A DNA stretch of 64,000 nucleotides from Gillisia sp. Hel1_33_143 (GTDB taxonomy: Bacteria > Bacteroidota > Bacteroidia > Flavobacteriales > Flavobacteriaceae). Below are positions 21,060-62,199 of this stretch, piece after piece; positions within the stretch are counted from its first letter, which is position 1, and each line of letters begins with the position of its first letter. The stretch lies in assembly GCF_900104765.1 (NCBI RefSeq), contig NZ_LT629737.1, positions 2,852,001 through 2,916,000 of the forward strand. The letters are read 5' to 3'. Made by a program: the position numbers and the translations under genes. The notes under the pieces were generated by a model. It was not told the origin of the DNA. It saw only the letters and a program-made list of their open reading frames with translations, and made no database searches.

Positions 21060-22235
21060 ATGGAGCAAGTACGACTATTTCCGCTAAATCATAAGAGGGC
21101 CCTGCAAATTGGGATCGCTTTTAAATTTGATAATGAGCTAAAAACTCATATTAAACAACTTACAGACCTTAATTGGAGCAAAACGCATTCTTGCTTTTAT
21201 GTACCATTCACTCAAAAGAATAAAGCTGAATTGTATTGGCATCTTAAAAAAGTGAATTGTGAAATGGATTATTCCAGATTGCAAAGCTTTAAACTTGAGG
21301 TTACAGAAACTCAGGAAATTTTAAAATTTTCTCCCTCAGATCATGTTGATACGATGAGAGAGTTCGAAAGTTATCTAAATGGAAACAGGTATAGCCAGAG
21401 CACGGTGGATACTTATTGTCATTTTGTTTCTATGCTCTTAAAGTTTTTGAAGAAACCCGTTTCAGAATTTACCAATAGAGATATTGAGTTGTTTGTTGAA
21501 AAGGAGATTGCAGCACCGGGATATTCTATAAGTACACATAGGCAATGTATAAGTGCGTTAAAGCATTTTGCAGATCTGCATGAGCAATCTCAAATTGATT
21601 CTGATAAGTTAAAACGACCCGATAAAAGTAAATATCTGCCGGTGGTACTTTCTAAAGAACAGGTGATAGATCTATTACGTGCCACTAGAAATTTAAAACA
21701 TCGAGCGGTGTTGGCGCTTATCTATTCTTCTGGACTAAGGGTTGGGGAATTGCTGAGTTTACAGATCAAGGAAATTGATGTAGATAGAAAGCAAATTTTG
21801 ATTAAGAATGGAAAAGGTAGAAAAGACCGTTATGTGATGTTAGCTGAAAGTTTTATTCCGCTGCTTTTAAATTATCTGGGAACTTACAGACCAGAGAGAT
21901 ACTTTGTAGAAGGTCAGGAAGGTGAGGTTTACAGTTCGTCTTCGGTACGCATGTTCTTAAAGATAGCCTGTAGAAGAGCTAAGATCAACAAAAAAGTGAC
22001 ACCCCATACATTGCGACACTCTTACGCTACCCATATGTTGGAGAATGGTATAGATCTAAGATACATTCAAGAACTCTTAGGCCACAGCAGACCGGAAACT
22101 ACGATGATCTACACACACGTAACTCAACGCGACCTGATGAAGATTAGAAGTCCATTGGATGTCACTTTAGGCGCACTCGCCAAAACTGCTAATACCGATG
22201 GAAACCTGCGCTTATCCCGGAACATTCTCGAATAA
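21060..22235 (+). CDS. Tyrosine recombinase, candidate integrase of the cassette array
   Basis: This 391-aa tyrosine recombinase has an extra N-terminal module (about 1-80, with WSKTHSCFYVPF) seen in many Bacteroidota recombinases, a SAM-like core-binding domain (about 93-175) and a catalytic domain. Residues R227 (SSGLRVGEL), K252 (GKGRKDR), H316 and R319 (HTLRH), H342 (LLGHSR) and Y351 (TTMIYTHV) are all present. The C-terminal IRSPLD resembles the RSPLD ending of integron IntI. The 30-40 residue IntI insertion between the K and HxxR regions is absent: only about 60 residues separate them. The gene ends 27 bp before the first cassette boundary and points towards the array. I infer it catalyses attC recombination; a plain XerC/D-like role is the alternative. 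Confidence 0.8.
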   Translation: MEQVRLFPLNHKRALQIGIAFKFDNELKTHIKQLTDLNWSKTHSCFYVPFTQKNKAELYWHLKKVNCEMDYSRLQSFKLEVTETQEILKFSPSDHVDTMREFESYLNGNRYSQSTVDTYCHFVSMLLKFLKKPVSEFTNRDIELFVEKEIAAPGYSISTHRQCISALKHFADLHEQSQIDSDKLKRPDKSKYLPVVLSKEQVIDLLRATRNLKHRAVLALIYSSGLRVGELLSLQIKEIDVDRKQILIKNGKGRKDRYVMLAESFIPLLLNYLGTYRPERYFVEGQEGEVYSSSSVRMFLKIACRRAKINKKVTPHTLRHSYATHMLENGIDLRYIQELLGHSRPETTMIYTHVTQRDLMKIRSPLDVTLGALAKTANTDGNLRLSRNILE

Positions 22236-33081: not shown

Positions 33082-34158
33082 TTAGGAAGTTGTCAATGCT
33101 AAATTGCTTCTATCCTGTGCAGCAAGGACTTCGGTTCTTGCTGTCTTTTTTTGCTCATGTTCTGGATCGTAATCTATTTTATTTTTCCATAAACTATACA
33201 TTAATACCAATAGCTTTCGCTCTACTGCTACTAAGGCTATCATTGGTTTGACTTTAGTGGGTTGGACTCGTTCGTAAAATTTTCTCAAGGTTGGATTCCA
33301 TTGTATGGCACTCATCGCTGGCATATATAGTGCACTGCGAATATGTTTATTCCCTTTCTTACTGATTCTCGTCTTTCCCTTATAAGCACCAGATTCTTTC
33401 AAGACCACATCAAATCCTGCATAGCTGGTCAATTGTTTAGCATTAGTAAAACCGGTGAAACCCAAAGTTTCACCTACTACGGTCGCTGCAGATTTAAAAG
33501 AGATCCCGGGGATACTTTCCAAATGCTTAATTCTTTGATGCATCTGTGGATCATTCTTAACTAGAATTTCCATCTCCTTTTCTATTTCTATCAACTGCTT
33601 TTCAATCAATTTTAATCGCTGTCCATAGCGCTTTAGCTCCCGCTTGCTTTTATAAACGGAGTGTTCTAAGGCATGAAGTCTATTTCGCTCAATCTGCTTT
33701 TCCTTTAGTAAAAAAGATCGTTCCCGACTCAGCCCTTTTAATTGACGTAATATTGGATCTGGTGGGCTCCATAATGCCAACTCTCTTTCACAGCCAAGCA
33801 TGGCAAGCATCCGGCTATCTAAGGCATCGGTCTTGGAACGTTGATCCAAACTTTGAGCATAGCGCTTTACACGTCCTGATTGCATAACACTTACAGGAAA
33901 TCCTTCCATATAGAGATGGTATACTAAAGCTTCATGATAAATACCTGTCGATTCCATAACGATAAATATATCTTCTGGAGAACTGGCATTTTTAAGTAAC
34001 CACTTTACCAACTTTTTAAAACCTGGTAAATTATTACTAACCTCAAATGGATCTTCAAACTCCTTTGCAAGTCTAGCCGTTAGACGGCACAAACAAACAG
34101 CCAAAGTCTCTTTTGAGATATCTACTCCTAAAGAGAGTTTCAAAATTTCATTCTTCAT
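33082..34158 (-). CDS. IS110-family (DEDD) transposase, type 1
   Basis: This 358-aa protein has an N-terminal DEDD RuvC-like domain: LGVDISKETLAV (D), VMESTGIYHEAL (E) and RSKTDALDSRMLA (D..D). After a coiled-coil linker (about 150-205) comes the C-terminal domain with SIPGISFKSAATVVGE and TSYAGFDVVLKESGAYKGK, whose Ser in KESG is the likely nucleophile. IS110 recombinases are guided by an element-encoded bridge RNA. The same protein is encoded at 38651-39727. Confidence 0.96.
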   Translation of the reverse strand: MKNEILKLSLGVDISKETLAVCLCRLTARLAKEFEDPFEVSNNLPGFKKLVKWLLKNASSPEDIFIVMESTGIYHEALVYHLYMEGFPVSVMQSGRVKRYAQSLDQRSKTDALDSRMLAMLGCERELALWSPPDPILRQLKGLSRERSFLLKEKQIERNRLHALEHSVYKSKRELKRYGQRLKLIEKQLIEIEKEMEILVKNDPQMHQRIKHLESIPGISFKSAATVVGETLGFTGFTNAKQLTSYAGFDVVLKESGAYKGKTRISKKGNKHIRSALYMPAMSAIQWNPTLRKFYERVQPTKVKPMIALVAVERKLLVLMYSLWKNKIDYDPEHEQKKTARTEVLAAQDRSNLALTTS

Positions 34159-38650: not shown

Positions 38651-39727
38651 TTAGGAAGTTGTCAATGCTAAATTGCTTCTATCCTGTGCAGCAAGGACTT
38701 CGGTTCTTGCTGTCTTTTTTTGCTCATGTTCTGGATCGTAATCTATTTTATTTTTCCATAAACTATACATTAATACCAATAGCTTTCGCTCTACTGCTAC
38801 TAAGGCTATCATTGGTTTGACTTTAGTGGGTTGGACTCGTTCGTAAAATTTTCTCAAGGTTGGATTCCATTGTATGGCACTCATCGCTGGCATATATAGT
38901 GCACTGCGAATATGTTTATTCCCTTTCTTACTGATTCTCGTCTTTCCCTTATAAGCACCAGATTCTTTCAAGACCACATCAAATCCTGCATAGCTGGTCA
39001 ATTGTTTAGCATTAGTAAAACCGGTGAAACCCAAAGTTTCACCTACTACGGTCGCTGCAGATTTAAAAGAGATCCCGGGGATACTTTCCAAATGCTTAAT
39101 TCTTTGATGCATCTGTGGATCATTCTTAACTAGAATTTCCATCTCCTTTTCTATTTCTATCAACTGCTTTTCAATCAATTTTAATCGCTGTCCATAGCGC
39201 TTTAGCTCCCGCTTGCTTTTATAAACGGAGTGTTCTAAGGCATGAAGTCTATTTCGCTCAATCTGCTTTTCCTTTAGTAAAAAAGATCGTTCCCGACTCA
39301 GCCCTTTTAATTGACGTAATATTGGATCTGGTGGGCTCCATAATGCCAACTCTCTTTCACAGCCAAGCATGGCAAGCATCCGGCTATCTAAGGCATCGGT
39401 CTTGGAACGTTGATCCAAACTTTGAGCATAGCGCTTTACACGTCCTGATTGCATAACACTTACAGGAAATCCTTCCATATAGAGATGGTATACTAAAGCT
39501 TCATGATAAATACCTGTCGATTCCATAACGATAAATATATCTTCTGGAGAACTGGCATTTTTAAGTAACCACTTTACCAACTTTTTAAAACCTGGTAAAT
39601 TATTACTAACCTCAAATGGATCTTCAAACTCCTTTGCAAGTCTAGCCGTTAGACGGCACAAACAAACAGCCAAAGTCTCTTTTGAGATATCTACTCCTAA
39701 AGAGAGTTTCAAAATTTCATTCTTCAT
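38651..39727 (-). CDS. IS110-family (DEDD) transposase, type 1 (second copy)
   Basis: A 358-aa protein identical to that at 33082-34158, with the same DEDD residues and C-terminal KESG serine. Because copies are identical, homologous recombination between them could delete cassette 13. Confidence 0.96.
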   Translation of the reverse strand: MKNEILKLSLGVDISKETLAVCLCRLTARLAKEFEDPFEVSNNLPGFKKLVKWLLKNASSPEDIFIVMESTGIYHEALVYHLYMEGFPVSVMQSGRVKRYAQSLDQRSKTDALDSRMLAMLGCERELALWSPPDPILRQLKGLSRERSFLLKEKQIERNRLHALEHSVYKSKRELKRYGQRLKLIEKQLIEIEKEMEILVKNDPQMHQRIKHLESIPGISFKSAATVVGETLGFTGFTNAKQLTSYAGFDVVLKESGAYKGKTRISKKGNKHIRSALYMPAMSAIQWNPTLRKFYERVQPTKVKPMIALVAVERKLLVLMYSLWKNKIDYDPEHEQKKTARTEVLAAQDRSNLALTTS

Positions 39728-49090: not shown

Positions 49091-49462
49091 ATGTATAAAA
49101 ATGACAGAGTAACCAGACGTTACAGTGAACCATTCAAATTAAAAATTTTATCAGAACTTAGTACTGGGAAATACACAAAGTATGAACTAGGCAAACTCTA
49201 TGGGATTGCTCCTTCCACCATCAATGAATGGATCAGAAAGTATGAACGTAAAGACCTAATGAACACAAGGGTTATGATAGAAACAAAGGATGAAATAACA
49301 CGGATCAAAGCACTCCAAAAAGAGATTGAACAGCTTAAAAAACTACTCCTTAAAAAGGATATGGATCAACTTGTCGATGATGCATACTTGGAAGTAGCTG
49401 CTCAAAAACTAGGCTACAAAAGTGTCTTGGAACTTAAAAAAAAACTAAATATCAAGCCTTAA
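49091..49462 (+). CDS. IS3 OrfA (type B, copy 1)
   Basis: This 123-aa protein has a helix-turn-helix (KYTKYELGKLYGIAPSTINEW) and a leucine-zipper-like coiled coil (about 72-98). An A9 run at 49436-49444 near its end is a likely -1 slippery site for making OrfAB. Confidence 0.93.
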   Translation: MYKNDRVTRRYSEPFKLKILSELSTGKYTKYELGKLYGIAPSTINEWIRKYERKDLMNTRVMIETKDEITRIKALQKEIEQLKKLLLKKDMDQLVDDAYLEVAAQKLGYKSVLELKKKLNIKP

Positions 49463-50313
49463 TCATAGCAAAGGAAAAAGCTAAGGGATTTGCTTCGTTA
49501 ACCAAAATATGTGATTGTTTTGAACTAAAGCGAGATGCTTATTATAAGTATAAATGCAGAGCTGATAAGCGAAAAAAGGTTGAACAACATATAATTACCA
49601 TCGTTAAAAGACGACGTAAATCCCTTCCTAGAGAAGGCGTGAGAAAGCTTATGAAATCCCTAGGACAGGATTTTGAAAAACAACACCTGAAAGTGGGTAG
49701 AGACACCCTGTTCAATGTTCTTAGAGAACATAAAATGTTGACATTAAGAAAAAAGTACAGTGCCAGAACAACCAATTCGTATCACAGGTTTTATAAGTAC
49801 AATAACATTATAAAAGATCTAAAAGTAAACCGATCTAATCAAGTTTGGGTATCGGACATTACGTATATCAGAACTCTAAAAGGATTTTGTTACCTAGCAC
49901 TCATTACAGATATGCATTCCAGAAAGATTGTGGGTTATGACCTTAGTGATAGCCTAGAACTTAAAGGATGCGTGAGAGCACTTAATAAAGCGATTTACCA
50001 AGCCAAAGACATCAAAGGGCTCATACACCATTCAGACAGAGGGATACAATATTGCAGCAATGTGTATACTCAAATCCTTAAAAGAAAAAAGATAGCTATC
50101 AGTATGACTGAAGAAAATCACTGTTACGAAAATGCAATGGCAGAACGCGTAAATGGGATCCTGAAAGATGAATTCTATCTCGATCAGGTCTTCACAAACA
50201 AGGAACACGCGAAAAGAGCAGCAAAAAGTGCCATTAAATTATATAATGCAATTAGATTACATTTATCTTTAGACTATCAAACTCCAAATATGGTATATAA
50301 ATTAACAGCGTAA
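49441..50313 (+). CDS. IS3 OrfB transposase (type B, copy 1)
   Basis: About 290 codons in the -1 frame relative to OrfA; the first ATG is only at 49639, so most OrfB is probably made by frameshifting on the A9 run. DDE residues lie in WVSDITYIRT, HHSDRGIQY and ENAMAERVNG. Confidence 0.92.
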   Translation, partial: KTKYQALIIAKEKAKGFASLTKICDCFELKRDAYYKYKCRADKRKKVEQHIITIVKRRRKSLPREGVRKLMKSLGQDFEKQHLKVGRDTLFNVLREHKMLTLRKKYSARTTNSYHRFYKYNNIIKDLKVNRSNQVWVSDITYIRTLKGFCYLALITDMHSRKIVGYDLSDSLELKGCVRALNKAIYQAKDIKGLIHHSDRGIQYCSNVYTQILKRKKIAISMTEENHCYENAMAERVNGILKDEFYLDQVFTNKEHAKRAAKSAIKLYNAIRLHLSLDYQTPNMVYKLTA

Positions 50314-54643: not shown

Positions 54644-55015
54644 ATGTATAAAAATGACAGAGTAACCAGACGTTACAGTGAACCATTCAAATTAAAAATT
54701 TTATCAGAACTTAGTACTGGGAAATACACAAAGTATGAACTAGGCAAACTCTATGGGATTGCTCCTTCCACCATCAATGAATGGATCAGAAAGTATGAAC
54801 GTAAAGACCTAATGAACACAAGGGTTATGATAGAAACAAAGGATGAAATAACACGGATCAAAGCACTCCAAAAAGAGATTGAACAGCTTAAAAAACTACT
54901 CCTTAAAAAGGATATGGATCAACTTGTCGATGATGCATACTTGGAAGTAGCTGCTCAAAAACTAGGCTACAAAAGTGTCTTGGAACTTAAAAAAAAACTA
55001 AATATCAAGCCTTAA
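54644..55015 (+). CDS. IS3 OrfA (type B, copy 2)
   Basis: A 123-aa protein identical to that at 49091-49462, with the helix-turn-helix and coiled coil intact. Confidence 0.93.
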   Translation: MYKNDRVTRRYSEPFKLKILSELSTGKYTKYELGKLYGIAPSTINEWIRKYERKDLMNTRVMIETKDEITRIKALQKEIEQLKKLLLKKDMDQLVDDAYLEVAAQKLGYKSVLELKKKLNIKP

Positions 55016-55866
55016 TCATAGCAAAGGAAAAAGCTAAGGGATTTGCTTCGTTAACCAAAATATGTGATTGTTTTGAACTAAAGCGAGATGCTTATTATAA
55101 GTATAAATGCAGAGCTGATAAGCGAAAAAAGGTTGAACAACATATAATTACCATCGTTAAAAGACGACGTAAATCCCTTCCTAGAGAAGGCGTGAGAAAG
55201 CTTATGAAATCCCTAGGACAGGATTTTGAAAAACAACACCTGAAAGTGGGTAGAGACACCCTGTTCAATGTTCTTAGAGAACATAAAATGTTGACATTAA
55301 GAAAAAAGTACAGTGCCAGAACAACCAATTCGTATCACAGGTTTTATAAGTACAATAACATTATAAAAGATCTAAAAGTAAACCGATCTAATCAAGTTTG
55401 GGTATCGGACATTACGTATATCAGAACTCTAAAAGGATTTTGTTACCTAGCACTCATTACAGATATGCATTCCAGAAAGATTGTGGGTTATGACCTTAGT
55501 GATAGCCTAGAACTTAAAGGATGCGTGAGAGCACTTAATAAAGCGATTTACCAAGCCAAAGACATCAAAGGGCTCATACACCATTCAGACAGAGGGATAC
55601 AATATTGCAGCAATGTGTATACTCAAATCCTTAAAAGAAAAAAGATAGCTATCAGTATGACTGAAGAAAATCACTGTTACGAAAATGCAATGGCAGAACG
55701 CGTAAATGGGATCCTGAAAGATGAATTCTATCTCGATCAGGTCTTCACAAACAAGGAACACGCGAAAAGAGCAGCAAAAAGTGCCATTAAATTATATAAT
55801 GCAATTAGATTACATTTATCTTTAGACTATCAAACTCCAAATATGGTATATAAATTAACAGCGTAA
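54994..55866 (+). CDS. IS3 OrfB transposase (type B, copy 2)
   Basis: Identical to copy 1 OrfB; DDE motifs intact; -1 frame relative to OrfA. Confidence 0.92.
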   Translation, partial: KTKYQALIIAKEKAKGFASLTKICDCFELKRDAYYKYKCRADKRKKVEQHIITIVKRRRKSLPREGVRKLMKSLGQDFEKQHLKVGRDTLFNVLREHKMLTLRKKYSARTTNSYHRFYKYNNIIKDLKVNRSNQVWVSDITYIRTLKGFCYLALITDMHSRKIVGYDLSDSLELKGCVRALNKAIYQAKDIKGLIHHSDRGIQYCSNVYTQILKRKKIAISMTEENHCYENAMAERVNGILKDEFYLDQVFTNKEHAKRAAKSAIKLYNAIRLHLSLDYQTPNMVYKLTA

Positions 55867-57941: not shown

Positions 57942-58313
57942 ATGTATAAAAATGACAGAGTAACCAGACGTTACAGTGAACCATTCAAATTAAAAATTTT
58001 ATCAGAACTTAGTACTGGGAAATACACAAAGTATGAACTAGGCAAACTCTATGGGATTGCTCCTTCCACCATCAATGAATGGATCAGAAAGTATGAACGT
58101 AAAGACCTAATGAACACAAGGGTTATGATAGAAACAAAGGATGAAATAACACGGATCAAAGCACTCCAAAAAGAGATTGAACAGCTTAAAAAACTACTCC
58201 TTAAAAAGGATATGGATCAACTTGTCGATGATGCATACTTGGAAGTAGCTGCTCAAAAACTAGGCTACAAAAGTGTCTTGGAACTTAAAAAAAAACTAAA
58301 TATCAAGCCTTAA
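57942..58313 (+). CDS. IS3 OrfA (type B, copy 3)
   Basis: A 123-aa protein identical to the other two copies. Confidence 0.93.
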   Translation: MYKNDRVTRRYSEPFKLKILSELSTGKYTKYELGKLYGIAPSTINEWIRKYERKDLMNTRVMIETKDEITRIKALQKEIEQLKKLLLKKDMDQLVDDAYLEVAAQKLGYKSVLELKKKLNIKP

Positions 58314-59164
58314 TCATAGCAAAGGAAAAAGCTAAGGGATTTGCTTCGTTAACCAAAATATGTGATTGTTTTGAACTAAAGCGAGATGCTTATTATAAGT
58401 ATAAATGCAGAGCTGATAAGCGAAAAAAGGTTGAACAACATATAATTACCATCGTTAAAAGACGACGTAAATCCCTTCCTAGAGAAGGCGTGAGAAAGCT
58501 TATGAAATCCCTAGGACAGGATTTTGAAAAACAACACCTGAAAGTGGGTAGAGACACCCTGTTCAATGTTCTTAGAGAACATAAAATGTTGACATTAAGA
58601 AAAAAGTACAGTGCCAGAACAACCAATTCGTATCACAGGTTTTATAAGTACAATAACATTATAAAAGATCTAAAAGTAAACCGATCTAATCAAGTTTGGG
58701 TATCGGACATTACGTATATCAGAACTCTAAAAGGATTTTGTTACCTAGCACTCATTACAGATATGCATTCCAGAAAGATTGTGGGTTATGACCTTAGTGA
58801 TAGCCTAGAACTTAAAGGATGCGTGAGAGCACTTAATAAAGCGATTTACCAAGCCAAAGACATCAAAGGGCTCATACACCATTCAGACAGAGGGATACAA
58901 TATTGCAGCAATGTGTATACTCAAATCCTTAAAAGAAAAAAGATAGCTATCAGTATGACTGAAGAAAATCACTGTTACGAAAATGCAATGGCAGAACGCG
59001 TAAATGGGATCCTGAAAGATGAATTCTATCTCGATCAGGTCTTCACAAACAAGGAACACGCGAAAAGAGCAGCAAAAAGTGCCATTAAATTATATAATGC
59101 AATTAGATTACATTTATCTTTAGACTATCAAACTCCAAATATGGTATATAAATTAACAGCGTAA
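58292..59164 (+). CDS. IS3 OrfB transposase (type B, copy 3)
   Basis: Identical to the other OrfB copies, -1 frame relative to OrfA, DDE motifs intact. Confidence 0.92.
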   Translation, partial: KTKYQALIIAKEKAKGFASLTKICDCFELKRDAYYKYKCRADKRKKVEQHIITIVKRRRKSLPREGVRKLMKSLGQDFEKQHLKVGRDTLFNVLREHKMLTLRKKYSARTTNSYHRFYKYNNIIKDLKVNRSNQVWVSDITYIRTLKGFCYLALITDMHSRKIVGYDLSDSLELKGCVRALNKAIYQAKDIKGLIHHSDRGIQYCSNVYTQILKRKKIAISMTEENHCYENAMAERVNGILKDEFYLDQVFTNKEHAKRAAKSAIKLYNAIRLHLSLDYQTPNMVYKLTA

Positions 59165-60235: not shown

Positions 60236-60517
60236 GTGATTAAAACATTTGCAGACAAAGAAGCTGACAAAATTTGGAACGGAACCCAATCGAGAAAGCT
60301 TCCTGCTAATATTCAAAATGTAGCAAGAAGAAAACTGAGAATGATAAATAATGCTCAAAATATAAATGACTTAAGAATCCCTCCAGCGAATCATTTGGAA
60401 AAGTTGAGTGGGATTTTAGAAGGTTTTCATAGCATTAGAATTAATAAGCAATGGAGAATAATATTCAAATGGGAAAATGACAATGCTTTTGAAGTTCAAA
60501 TTGTTGATTACCATTAA
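60236..60517 (+). CDS. higB: HigB-like toxin (cassette 31)
   Basis: This 93-aa RelE-superfamily mRNA interferase begins with GTG: IKTFADKEADKIWNG. It continues SRKLPANIQNVARRKLRMI, RIPPANHLEKLSG, FHSIRINKQWRIIFKW and VQIVDYH, the complete HigB signature. The toxin precedes the antitoxin, the usual hig order. It likely cleaves ribosome-bound mRNA. Confidence 0.95.
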   Translation: MIKTFADKEADKIWNGTQSRKLPANIQNVARRKLRMINNAQNINDLRIPPANHLEKLSGILEGFHSIRINKQWRIIFKWENDNAFEVQIVDYH

Positions 60518-60535
60518 TTTTAAAAAGATAAAAAA

Positions 60536-60835
60536 ATGAAAAAGTTAGAAAATATACATCCTGGAGAAATCTTGAAAGAAGAATTTTTAGATCCAATGGA
60601 AATTACTGCATACCGACTTTCTAAAGAAACTTTTATTCCGCAGACAAGAATAAGTGAAATCATAAAAAAGAAAAGAAGAATTACTGCTGACACCGCTCTT
60701 CGACTTTCAAAATATTTTGGAACCACAGCAAAATTTTGGCTGGGATTGCAAGATGATTATGATTTAGAAGAAGAAAAATCTTTAAAGGAGAAAGAATTCA
60801 ATAACATAAAACCGTTAGAAAATAACGCAGCCTAA
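60536..60835 (+). CDS. higA: HigA-like antitoxin (cassette 31)
   Basis: This 99-aa XRE-type antitoxin begins IHPGEILKEEFLDPMEITAYRLSKETFIPQTRISEII and continues RITADTALRLSKYFGTTAKFWLGLQ, a classic HigA/VapI helix-turn-helix. It neutralises HigB and represses the operon, probably at the palindrome upstream. It lies 18 bp after the toxin gene. Confidence 0.95.
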   Translation: MKKLENIHPGEILKEEFLDPMEITAYRLSKETFIPQTRISEIIKKKRRITADTALRLSKYFGTTAKFWLGLQDDYDLEEEKSLKEKEFNNIKPLENNAA

Positions 60836-60987
60836 CAACGGTTATCACAAATAACGGGTTTTATCAAAAAAGTGTATTTTAGTATCCTAAGTAAGAAAAT
60901 ACTTAAACTGACAAGTTCGCGTCCCTACTCCCGCAACTTGTGTTAACCGTATTCCAAGGTTAAATCCAAACTTTTTTCCCTAATTTT

Positions 60988-61974
60988 TCAGGCAGCAAAT
61001 TTATGTAGTTCCACATACGGAGTACCTCGTTTTACTACTGCAAACACTCTGGATAATAGCTTATTGCGAACATTATTCAGCGCAATCATCTTTAGTTTAC
61101 CTTCTTCTAGCTTTTTCTTGTAATAACGGCGTAATTCACTATCATGTTGAATAGCTGTACAGGCAGCCATGCTAAGCAGACTCTTCATTTGCCGGTCTCC
61201 CATCGGGTGGCATTTTCGCCTTTTATGAATACTGGTCCCAGAACTATGACCAAAAGGAGCGGTTCCACAATAACTGGAGAATTGGCGCCAGCTATCAAAG
61301 CGTTTAAAATTATTGGTGTGATAAAGTATTTGGGCTCCCACAACCAGACCCACGCCTTTTAAAGAAGTGATCAACCGATAATTTTGCGATAATGCTTCAG
61401 AATCCTTTATAACTGATTTTAACTGCTTCTCTATTTTGTTTATTTGAGAAGTTAGATGAGCAATAGAGCTTACCAGCGTCTTGCAACAGGTATCAGTTGA
61501 ACTACTATTTAGCAATTTTTTTAGCTCGGAAAGCGTGCTCTTTAATCCTGTACGACTTCGAACCAGTTGATCCCTTAAAGCTAGCAATCTGCCTACTTCC
61601 AAGAGTTCTTTATCTTTCAGCTCACTGGCAGAAAGTTCCTCCCGGTGAAGCCAACCATACCTTGCGATCATCATGGCATCTACAACATCATTCTTCTCCC
61701 TGATTACTCCGGAGGATCTTTTGATCACTACTGGGTTTTCCTGCACATAAACCGCATTCTTCGACGATAAATATAAGGCTAACTTCAAGGAATAATGACC
61801 CGTATTCTCAAAACAAAAAAACACTTTTAGTTCGTTACTTTTAGCCCATTTCAATAGCGATTTATAACCCAATACATCATTACTGAACTCCCGATGTAAC
61901 CTTCGATTATACGCAAAAGCATCTAACTTGTTTTTTGAAACATCAATTCCGATTACTTCTTGGTAATTTTTCAT
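60988..61974 (-). CDS. IS110-family (DEDD) transposase, type 2
   Basis: This 328-aa protein has IGIDVSKNKLDAF (D), FCFENTGHYSLKLAL (E) and KNDVVDAMMIARYG (D..D) in the N-terminal domain. The C-terminal domain has SLKGVGLVVGAQIL and SSYCGTAPFGHSSGTS, with the probable serine nucleophile in HSSG. It is clearly distinct from the type 1 transposase. Confidence 0.95.
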   Translation of the reverse strand: MKNYQEVIGIDVSKNKLDAFAYNRRLHREFSNDVLGYKSLLKWAKSNELKVFFCFENTGHYSLKLALYLSSKNAVYVQENPVVIKRSSGVIREKNDVVDAMMIARYGWLHREELSASELKDKELLEVGRLLALRDQLVRSRTGLKSTLSELKKLLNSSSTDTCCKTLVSSIAHLTSQINKIEKQLKSVIKDSEALSQNYRLITSLKGVGLVVGAQILYHTNNFKRFDSWRQFSSYCGTAPFGHSSGTSIHKRRKCHPMGDRQMKSLLSMAACTAIQHDSELRRYYKKKLEEGKLKMIALNNVRNKLLSRVFAVVKRGTPYVELHKFAA

Positions 61975-62178
61975 ATTTTTAAAAAATTAATATTTGAAGG
62001 GCGCAGTAACTAACTCCTTTAACGGGTCCATTTATTGACCTGGTATTCCAAATGGTTCTTTGCTGCCCATGTGAAGAATGGAGGACTCTTACGGATATTG
62101 GATCTGTAATCTAGAGACCGTTTTAGTTCTCCTCCTTCTTCATCTCAAAGGTATATTTATTAATAAACGAAGTAAAGG
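61975..62178 (-). ncRNA. Candidate bridge RNA region of IS110 type 2
   Basis: On the - strand, in order: AACGGTCTC (62114-62122), matching the attC target to the left of the insertion; TATCCG (62092-62097), complementary to the other flank except one base; TTGGAATACC (62042-62051), matching 10 nt across the element's joined ends; and TAAAGG (62016-62021), complementary to the other donor flank. This is the full target-left, target-right, donor-left, donor-right order of a bridge RNA. Confidence 0.75.
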
Positions 62179-62199
62179 AGACCGTTGTGGGTAATTTTT

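What the first reader, a model, noticed from the sequence alone, without database searches (positions are those of the whole stretch)
61975..62178. A second, unrelated IS110 has a complete four-guide pattern for attC
The type 2 element inserted at TTAACCG-AGACCGTT. Its upstream region on the - strand has AACGGTCTC (target left), TATCCG (target right, one mismatch), TTGGAATACC (10 nt across the element's own joined ends) and TAAAGG (donor right). Order and spacing parallel the type 1 element (26 nt between the target guides in both). AGACCGTT is the most conserved part of all attC sites, so this element could enter nearly any cassette junction.
Basis: partly seen in the sequence, partly recalled or inferred. 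Interest (0 to 1): 0.92.

Follow-up and report, generated by a model that had tools for sequence, protein, structure and literature searches.

The report
RNA-guided jumping gene targeting integron junctions
A small bacterial jumping gene carries an RNA whose short guide sequences match the junctions between mobile gene cassettes, and its relatives carry altered guides that match altered junctions; this is a new branch of a recently discovered kind of RNA-guided DNA insertion, inferred from sequence and not yet tested at the bench.

Summary
The element (60949-62177, minus strand, 1,229 bp) has a 328-aa IS110 recombinase and a 203-nt upstream noncoding region. It splits a genuine integron attC at AACGGTCTC|GGTTAAC without target duplication. 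The left-target (9/9) and left-donor (10/10) guides exceed chance; the right-target (5/6) and right-donor guides do not on their own. A covariance model from 12 relatives, window left out, recovers the RNA at 7e-24.

Relatives at 59-90% identity give 30 insertions in 15 genomes of one family; 27 adjoin attC-type sites. Guide and target change together (AACGGTCTC, AACGGTCTT, AACGTGTTT, AACGTTGTT). In one genome two element types each occupy their own site subtype (5 against 4). Two insertions lie in ordinary genes that spell the left guide, which favours linear sequence over the attC fold. More distant relatives have the same RNA and unrelated targets.

IS1111-group elements (ISKpn4, ISPst6) are already known to reach attC by RNA. 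New here: the IS110-group branch, its family-wide specialisation, and guides that follow attC variants.

The parts
60949..62177 (-). whole IS110-group element, 1,229 bp, ends CTTTAC...TTGGAATAC; no target-site duplication
   Evidence: junctions read directly; empty sites of the same array and of other genomes
60988..61974 (-). IS110 recombinase, 328 aa, DEDD_Tnp_IS110 + Transposase_20
   Evidence: matches ISCro4 (PDB 9t56, 2.1e-26) and IS621 (8wt6, 3.7e-23)
61975..62177 (-). 203-nt upstream noncoding region
61993..62147 (-). predicted bridge RNA (two-loop RNA)
   Evidence: held-out covariance model R1, 119.9 bits, E 7e-24; covariation
62114..62122 (-). left target guide AACGGTCTC, 9/9 to left target
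62092..62097 (-). right target guide TATCCG, 5/6 to right target
62042..62051 (-). left donor guide TTGGAATACC, 10/10 across joined element ends
   Evidence: 9-nt part compared with the right end
62016..62021 (-). right donor guide TAAAGG, 6/6 to the element's left end
   Evidence: offset 156 of the upstream region
62178..62186 (-). left half of target: AACGGTCTC (integron R' box GTT plus spacer)
60942..60948 (-). right half of target: GGTTAAC (attC L' side)
60236..60835 (+). cassette whose attC is interrupted: HigB-like toxin gene and a helix-turn-helix gene
21060..22235 (+). tyrosine recombinase at the start of the cassette array, candidate integron integrase

Best explanation
This is an IS110-group insertion sequence with an intact gene. 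Its upstream region encodes a bridge RNA. The first internal loop of that RNA reads the integron attC site: the left guide AACGGTCTC covers the GTT crossover triplet of the R' box plus the spacer, and the right guide TATCCG reads the first bases of the L' side. The second loop reads the element's own joined ends. The DEDD recombinase uses the RNA to insert the circular element precisely between spacer and L' side, in one orientation, without duplicating the target, and this splits the attC. The clade has kept the landing site (attC) while its guides changed to match different attC spacers. Shown by sequence: element ends, empty site, conserved covarying RNA, guide-target covariation. Inferred from the named families and not shown here: transcription of the RNA, binding to the recombinase, a circular intermediate, and loss of attC function.
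For: Held-out covariance model finds the window RNA at 7e-24 and 17 of 17 distant relatives, but neither type 1 locus. 13 of 34 pairs change on both sides, 0 of 500 shuffles as high. Left guide vs target over 29 clade insertions: mean 8.66/9 against 6.94 for swapped pairs, 0 of 100,000; right guide over 26: 4.50/6 against 4.09, 4 of 100,000. One element per guide pair (n=11): left 8.55 vs 7.00 (24 of 100,000), right 4.36 vs 3.95 (2,354 of 100,000). Distant relatives with other targets: left n=14, 6.64 vs 3.37; right n=10, 5.5 vs 2.7; 0 of 100,000 each. Donor guide vs own right end, n=26: 8.19/9 vs 7.16, 0 of 20,000. Within genome G346 five copies with the GTGTTT guide all sit at AACGTGTTY and four with the GTTGTT guide all at AACG(T/C)TGTT, Fisher p 0.008. 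The array shows the integron cassette hallmark in 23 of 25 scored cassettes.
Against: No expression or activity data. The right-target guide has a mismatch and by itself is no better than chance in this element (12,148 of 20,000 shuffles). Right-guide agreement is weaker than left throughout the clade, and L012 and the two G132 copies carry AACGGTCTT guides at AACGGTCTC sites. Three of 30 insertions are not clearly at attC: L008 and L059 lie in ordinary open frames, L010's right flank is not attC-like. Relatedness inflates the counts: on the protein tree the contrast at guide letter 5 gives only two independent pairs, both concordant, too few for a sign test. One copy exists in this genome despite 46 exact potential sites.
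Confidence: 0.9

Rival explanations
1. The element recognises the folded single-stranded attC hairpin, or is placed by the integron integrase; the guide matches are a by-product.
For: 27 of 30 insertions adjoin attC-type sites, and three copies have right ends joined to another attC at the integrase crossover triplet.
Against: L008 and L059 sit in ordinary open reading frames without a significant attC-like inverted repeat but with left-guide matches of 9/9 and 8/9. Two element types in one genome choose different site subtypes by spacer spelling. Distant relatives with the same RNA architecture insert at unrelated sequences that match their guides.
Confidence: 0.05
2. Guide-target agreement reflects which attC sequences each host happens to have plus shared ancestry, not guidance.
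For: Swapped pairs inside the clade already agree at 6.94 of 9 left-target letters, because all sites share AACG; independent pairs are few.
Against: G346 carries both element types and each sits only at its own spacer or one letter from it. G157 and G784 hold many unoccupied attC-type sites with other spacers. The distant relatives agree with their own targets at about twice the swapped level.
Confidence: 0.04
3. The guide reading is right but this copy no longer moves.
For: Single copy in this genome; relatives L009, L015/L005, L035 and L050 have stops in the gene.
Against: Intact reading frame with both family domains over threshold, complete ends and RNA; sister types are multicopy (9 in G346, 6 in G784).
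Confidence: 0.2

Closest known systems
IS621 (IS110 group, bridge RNA; Durrant 2024, PMC11208160: outline, sections 6-8 and passages read)
   Same: DEDD recombinase of the same family; long upstream noncoding end; RNA with two internal loops; target guides in the first loop, donor guides in the second, left before right
   Different: different target (attC); target and donor share a single C at the crossover here rather than a CT core; different RNA sequence
ISKpn4, ISPst6, ISPa25 (IS1111 group, seekRNA; Siddiquee 2024, PMC11187229, passages read; Post and Hall 2009 and Tetu and Holmes 2008 seen only as references, the latter not held)
   Same: insertion sequences whose RNA matches one end of certain integron attC sites
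   Different: IS1111 group has a downstream noncoding region, subterminal inverted repeats and reversed guide order; here the region is upstream and no inverted match above 5 nt was found between the ends
ISEc21 and ISMch6 (IS110 group, Siddiquee 2024, passages read)
   Same: upstream noncoding RNA; natural change of guide together with target
   Different: linear target inside IS3-family elements, not attC
type 1 IS110 of this window (33082-34158 and 38651-39727)
   Same: also interrupts attC sites of this array; 9/9 left-target match in its upstream region
   Different: 29% identical recombinase, left junction 3-4 nt further towards the L' side, RNA not found by the model of this clade

Membership tests
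IS110 group of the IS110 family | DEDD recombinase with N-terminal RuvC-like and C-terminal Transposase_20 domains | tested here: met
   PF01548 73.6 bits and PF02371 72.1 bits, both over cut-off; NF033542 181.6 over 140; matches ISCro4 and IS621
IS110 group of the IS110 family | longer noncoding region upstream of the recombinase gene | tested here: met
   203 nt upstream, 39 nt downstream
IS110 group of the IS110 family | two-loop bridge RNA | tested here: met
   covariation and held-out model; expression not tested
IS110 group of the IS110 family | left and right target and donor guides in that order | tested here: met
   left guides 9/9 and 10/10; right target 5/6 and right donor 6/6, but these two are not significant alone
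IS110 group of the IS110 family | no target-site duplication | tested here: met
   empty sites
IS110 group of the IS110 family | RNA bound to recombinase, circular intermediate | not testable with these tools
   needs experiment
IS1111-attC elements | downstream noncoding region with subterminal inverted repeats, usually 11-13 bp (PMC11187229, passage) | tested here: not met
   upstream region; longest exact inverted match between first 60 and last 45 nt is 5 nt
integron cassette array (the target) | start of each cassette complementary to the R'' box of its own attC | tested here: met
   23 of 25 scored cassettes at 6 or more of 7, mean 6.68; other cassettes 116 of 700, mean 4.49
integron cassette array (the target) | canonical IntI integrase | tested here: not met
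   P0003 scores 196.5 against cut-off 265 for TIGR02249, in two pieces that skip model 178-241; XerA-type NF040815 226.5 over 220

The most novel reading that the evidence does not exclude
A whole IS110 clade in Flavobacteriaceae has made integron cassette junctions its standing niche: the bridge RNA keeps the GTT of the integrase crossover in its left guide and re-spells the rest to follow attC spacer variants, so that different guide types share out the attC subtypes of one genome. The three copies joined to attC at the integrase crossover would then show the element's end being captured as a cassette boundary, so that the integron in turn moves the element.
Probability: 0.35. Interest if true: 0.78.

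Novelty: new variant of a known kind. Interest (0 to 1): 0.62.

Why it matters
It gives a natural series in which bridge-RNA guides and their DNA targets have changed together inside one clade, with two guide types side by side in one genome and two off-target insertions. That makes the guide rules testable for IS110 recombinases beyond those studied so far. It also suggests that RNA-guided insertion into attC arose in the IS110 group as well as in the IS1111 group, which bears on how cassette arrays are frozen, broken or rearranged in environmental bacteria.

Tried and rejected
Rfam scan of the region gave only hits below the families' gathering scores. Minimum-energy folding alone was not distinctive. 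A protein scan of viral contigs found no relatives and one of plasmids no match at 1e-60. First parsing scripts had faults that I corrected: misread the L008 guide, (L034; the GTGTTT-type loci) took wrong left ends, one search counted the L040 copy twice through L062; one search supersedes them. In one search the guide is read at a fixed offset, so three distant relatives (L018, L026, L027) score only 2-4 of 9; they were kept in the count. A first cassette-hallmark script found only 5 sites and no signal; one search replaced it with 30 sites, of which 25 neighbouring pairs could be scored. One search failed on a missing file and was rerun. Rejected: attC fold recognition (off-target genes), chance match (shuffles), host attC composition (two types in one genome), IS1111-attC membership (upstream region, no subterminal repeats).

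Left open: a Bacteroidota-type promoter-like TAnnTTTG just upstream of the RNA (read by eye, consensus recalled) was not tested.

Full report
What is there. The window lies in a 3.48-Mb single-contig genome (G000). At 60949-62177 on the minus strand is a 1,229-bp insertion sequence with ends CTTTAC and TTGGAATAC. Its single gene (60988-61974, 328 aa) is an IS110-family recombinase: both Pfam domains are over their cut-offs, NCBIfam 'IS110 family RNA-guided transposase' scores 181.6 against 140, and the solved relatives are ISCro4 and IS621. 203 nt are noncoding upstream of the gene and 39 nt downstream.

The target is a real integron junction. The window holds 31 AGACCGTT, against 0.98 expected; of these one is the guide itself, one lies in the recombinase gene at 21060-22235, one is the site interrupted by this element and two are sites interrupted by the type 1 elements (read). 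Of 25 neighbouring cassettes that could be scored, 23 start with a sequence that matches the R'' box of their own attC at 6 or more of 7 letters, mean 6.68; for other cassettes 116 of 700, mean 4.49. This is the classic sign of integron cassettes (recalled). Empty sites in the array read AACGGTCTC|GGTTAA (17), AACGGTCTT|GGTTAA (5) and AACGTTCTC|GGTTAA (1); with those of other genomes they fix the crossover and show no duplication. The element separates the R' box and spacer from the L' side, so the attC of the cassette with a HigB-like gene at 60236-60835 is split. Loss of its function is an inference. In the whole genome 46 sites read AACGGTCTYGGTTA exactly (31 with C, 15 with T); 60 with up to one mismatch, against 10 for the backwards control pattern. 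Those outside the window were not checked for attC structure.

The four guides. The left-target 9-mer and left-donor 10-mer are each reached in fewer than 10 of 20,000 shuffles; the right-target 6-mer with one mismatch (12,148) and the right-donor 6-mer (3,004) are not significant alone; all four together 0. The gap between the target guides is 16 nt, not 26. The order is that described for IS621 (PMC11208160, sections 6-8 read); in IS1111 seekRNAs the order of the target matches is reversed (PMC11187229, passages read).

The RNA. Fifteen clade sequences align. On 12 of them, without the window and its two nearest relatives, 95.1% of cells pair, 13 of 34 pairs have a change on both sides and the covariation score is 0.278 (shuffles 0.141), each beyond all 500 shuffles; the number of pair types is not (168 of 500). 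The structure was derived from these same sequences, so part of the excess over slid versions is expected. A covariance model from these 12 finds the held-out window RNA at 61993-62147 with 119.9 bits, E 7e-24. It also finds L004, L005 and L061, none of them in the model, and 17 of 17 more distant relatives (38-43% identical recombinases), but not the two type 1 copies. Four opposite-strand hits (E 0.017-0.35) are taken as chance.

The survey. Protein searches covered samples of the family, order, phylum, four genera and one set of relatives (samples overlap, and large searches score only 5-7 candidates a genome, so copy numbers are lower bounds). The Mesonia copy is broken into two pieces with stops. 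Recombinases of about 59-90% identity occur in 15 genomes, all coded as the window's family; that this family is Flavobacteriaceae rests on the Salegentibacter record. The order sample (395 genomes) and phylum sample (395) gave no hit outside that family at 1e-85. The 15 genomes hold 30 distinct insertions (29, one). 24 have attC-type sequence on both sides, 3 more have a rearranged right end joined to an attC, 2 (L008, L059) lie inside open reading frames, and 1 (L010) has an attC-like left side only. The attC label rests on flank sequence read by eye. The inverted repeat in the right flank was significant (10 or fewer of 200 shuffles) in 18 of the 23 two-sided sites and in none of L008, L059, L010. 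An exact 8-nt partner of the R'' box, followed by CG, was found downstream for 7 of 12 attC-type insertions tested and for neither of two genic ones; no chance control was run for this.

Guide follows target. Left guide agreement over the 30 insertions: 21 at 9/9, 8 at 8/9, 1 at 7/9. Right guide over the 27 with an intact right end: 3 at 6/6, 11 at 5/6, 10 at 4/6, 2 at 3/6, 1 at 2/6; the three lowest are L008, L059 and L010. Against swapped pairs (29 and 26 insertions): left 8.66 vs 6.94, 0 of 100,000; right 4.50 vs 4.09, 4 of 100,000. One per guide pair (11): left 24 of 100,000, right 2,354 of 100,000. Of 17 distant relatives 14 could be parsed; none has a left target that begins AACG, and their targets match their own guides: left (n=14) 6.64 vs 3.37, right (n=10) 5.5 vs 2.7, 0 of 100,000 each. 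The donor guide also follows the element's right end (TTGGAATAC in all 15 clade members tested; ATAG- or TTAG-type in 11 others), 8.19 vs 7.16, n=26; that contrast is mainly one between the two groups.

The best control is one genome. G346 carries five copies with guide AACGTGTTT, at AACGTGTTT (two) or AACGTGTTC (three), and four with guide AACGTTGTT, at AACGTTGTT (three) or AACGCTGTT (one, the genic L059); Fisher p 0.008. With G784 (one and five copies) p 0.0002, where the single copy with guide AGCGTGTTT sits at AACGTATTT and was counted as concordant. Host attC composition does not explain that.

The tree. The 15 clade recombinases used (L005 and L069 left out) form one branch, 100/100. The grouping was made by sequence kinship, L008 and L010 included, so this shows that the attC-associated elements are one lineage, not that every member hits attC. 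On it left guides change at least 4 times, right guides 8, and the two independent contrasts at guide letter 5 both go with the target, too few for a test.

Linear sequence, not fold. L008 interrupts an open frame with TSP3-like repeats and L059 an open frame that looks like a symporter (names recalled, not searched); joined flanks stay open for 276 and 277 aa. Both sites match the left guide (9/9, 8/9) and have no significant attC-like repeat. This is what a guide RNA predicts and what recognition of the attC hairpin does not.

Known and new. ISKpn4, ISPst6 and ISPa25 of the IS1111 group match attC with their RNA (PMC11187229, passages read), so attC targeting by a guide RNA is known. Searches for attC + IS110 + bridge RNA (1 paper), IS1111 + attC + insertion sequence + gene cassette (14), IS110 + integron + gene cassette + guide (14), seekRNA + IS110 (6), IS110 + attC + insertion sequence (26, 15 listed), and three on integrons in Flavobacteriaceae, Bacteroidota or Bacteroidetes (4, 3, and 13 with 12 listed) showed, from titles and the starts of abstracts, no report of an IS110-group clade on attC. 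ISfinder and most subscription papers were not available, so this is not proof of absence.

Verdict.

Noticed in passing
window 21060-22235 (+): The recombinase at the head of the array fits a XerA-type model (NF040815 226.5 over 220) better than the integron-integrase model and skips model stretch 178-241 (IntI-specific insert, recalled), although the array has genuine cassettes.
   Followed up: partly
L061, L062, L063: Three clade copies have a shortened right end (..TTTAA or ..CTTGGA) joined to a different attC-type site at AA^C, the integrase crossover; two different element types in G346 share the same breakpoint.
   Followed up: partly
window 33082-34158 and 38651-39727 (-): Two identical type 1 IS110 recombinases also interrupt attC sites, a few bases further towards the L' side; the upstream region has GGTCTTGGT 9/9 but no clear right-target guide.
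   Followed up: partly
window 49091-50313, 54644-55866, 57942-59164 (+): A pair of open reading frames of 123 and 224 aa recurs three times at the same spacing within the array, apparently a duplicated cassette or mobile unit; sequences not compared.
   Followed up: no
G000:C1 648-657 kb, 1947-1961 kb, 2.06 Mb, 2875-2928 kb: The 46 exact attC-type sites of this genome fall in separate clusters, so cassettes may occur in more than one place of the chromosome.
   Followed up: no
L008 (L043) and L059 (L068): Two off-target insertions inside open reading frames whose sequence matches the left guide; useful natural off-target data.
   Followed up: yes
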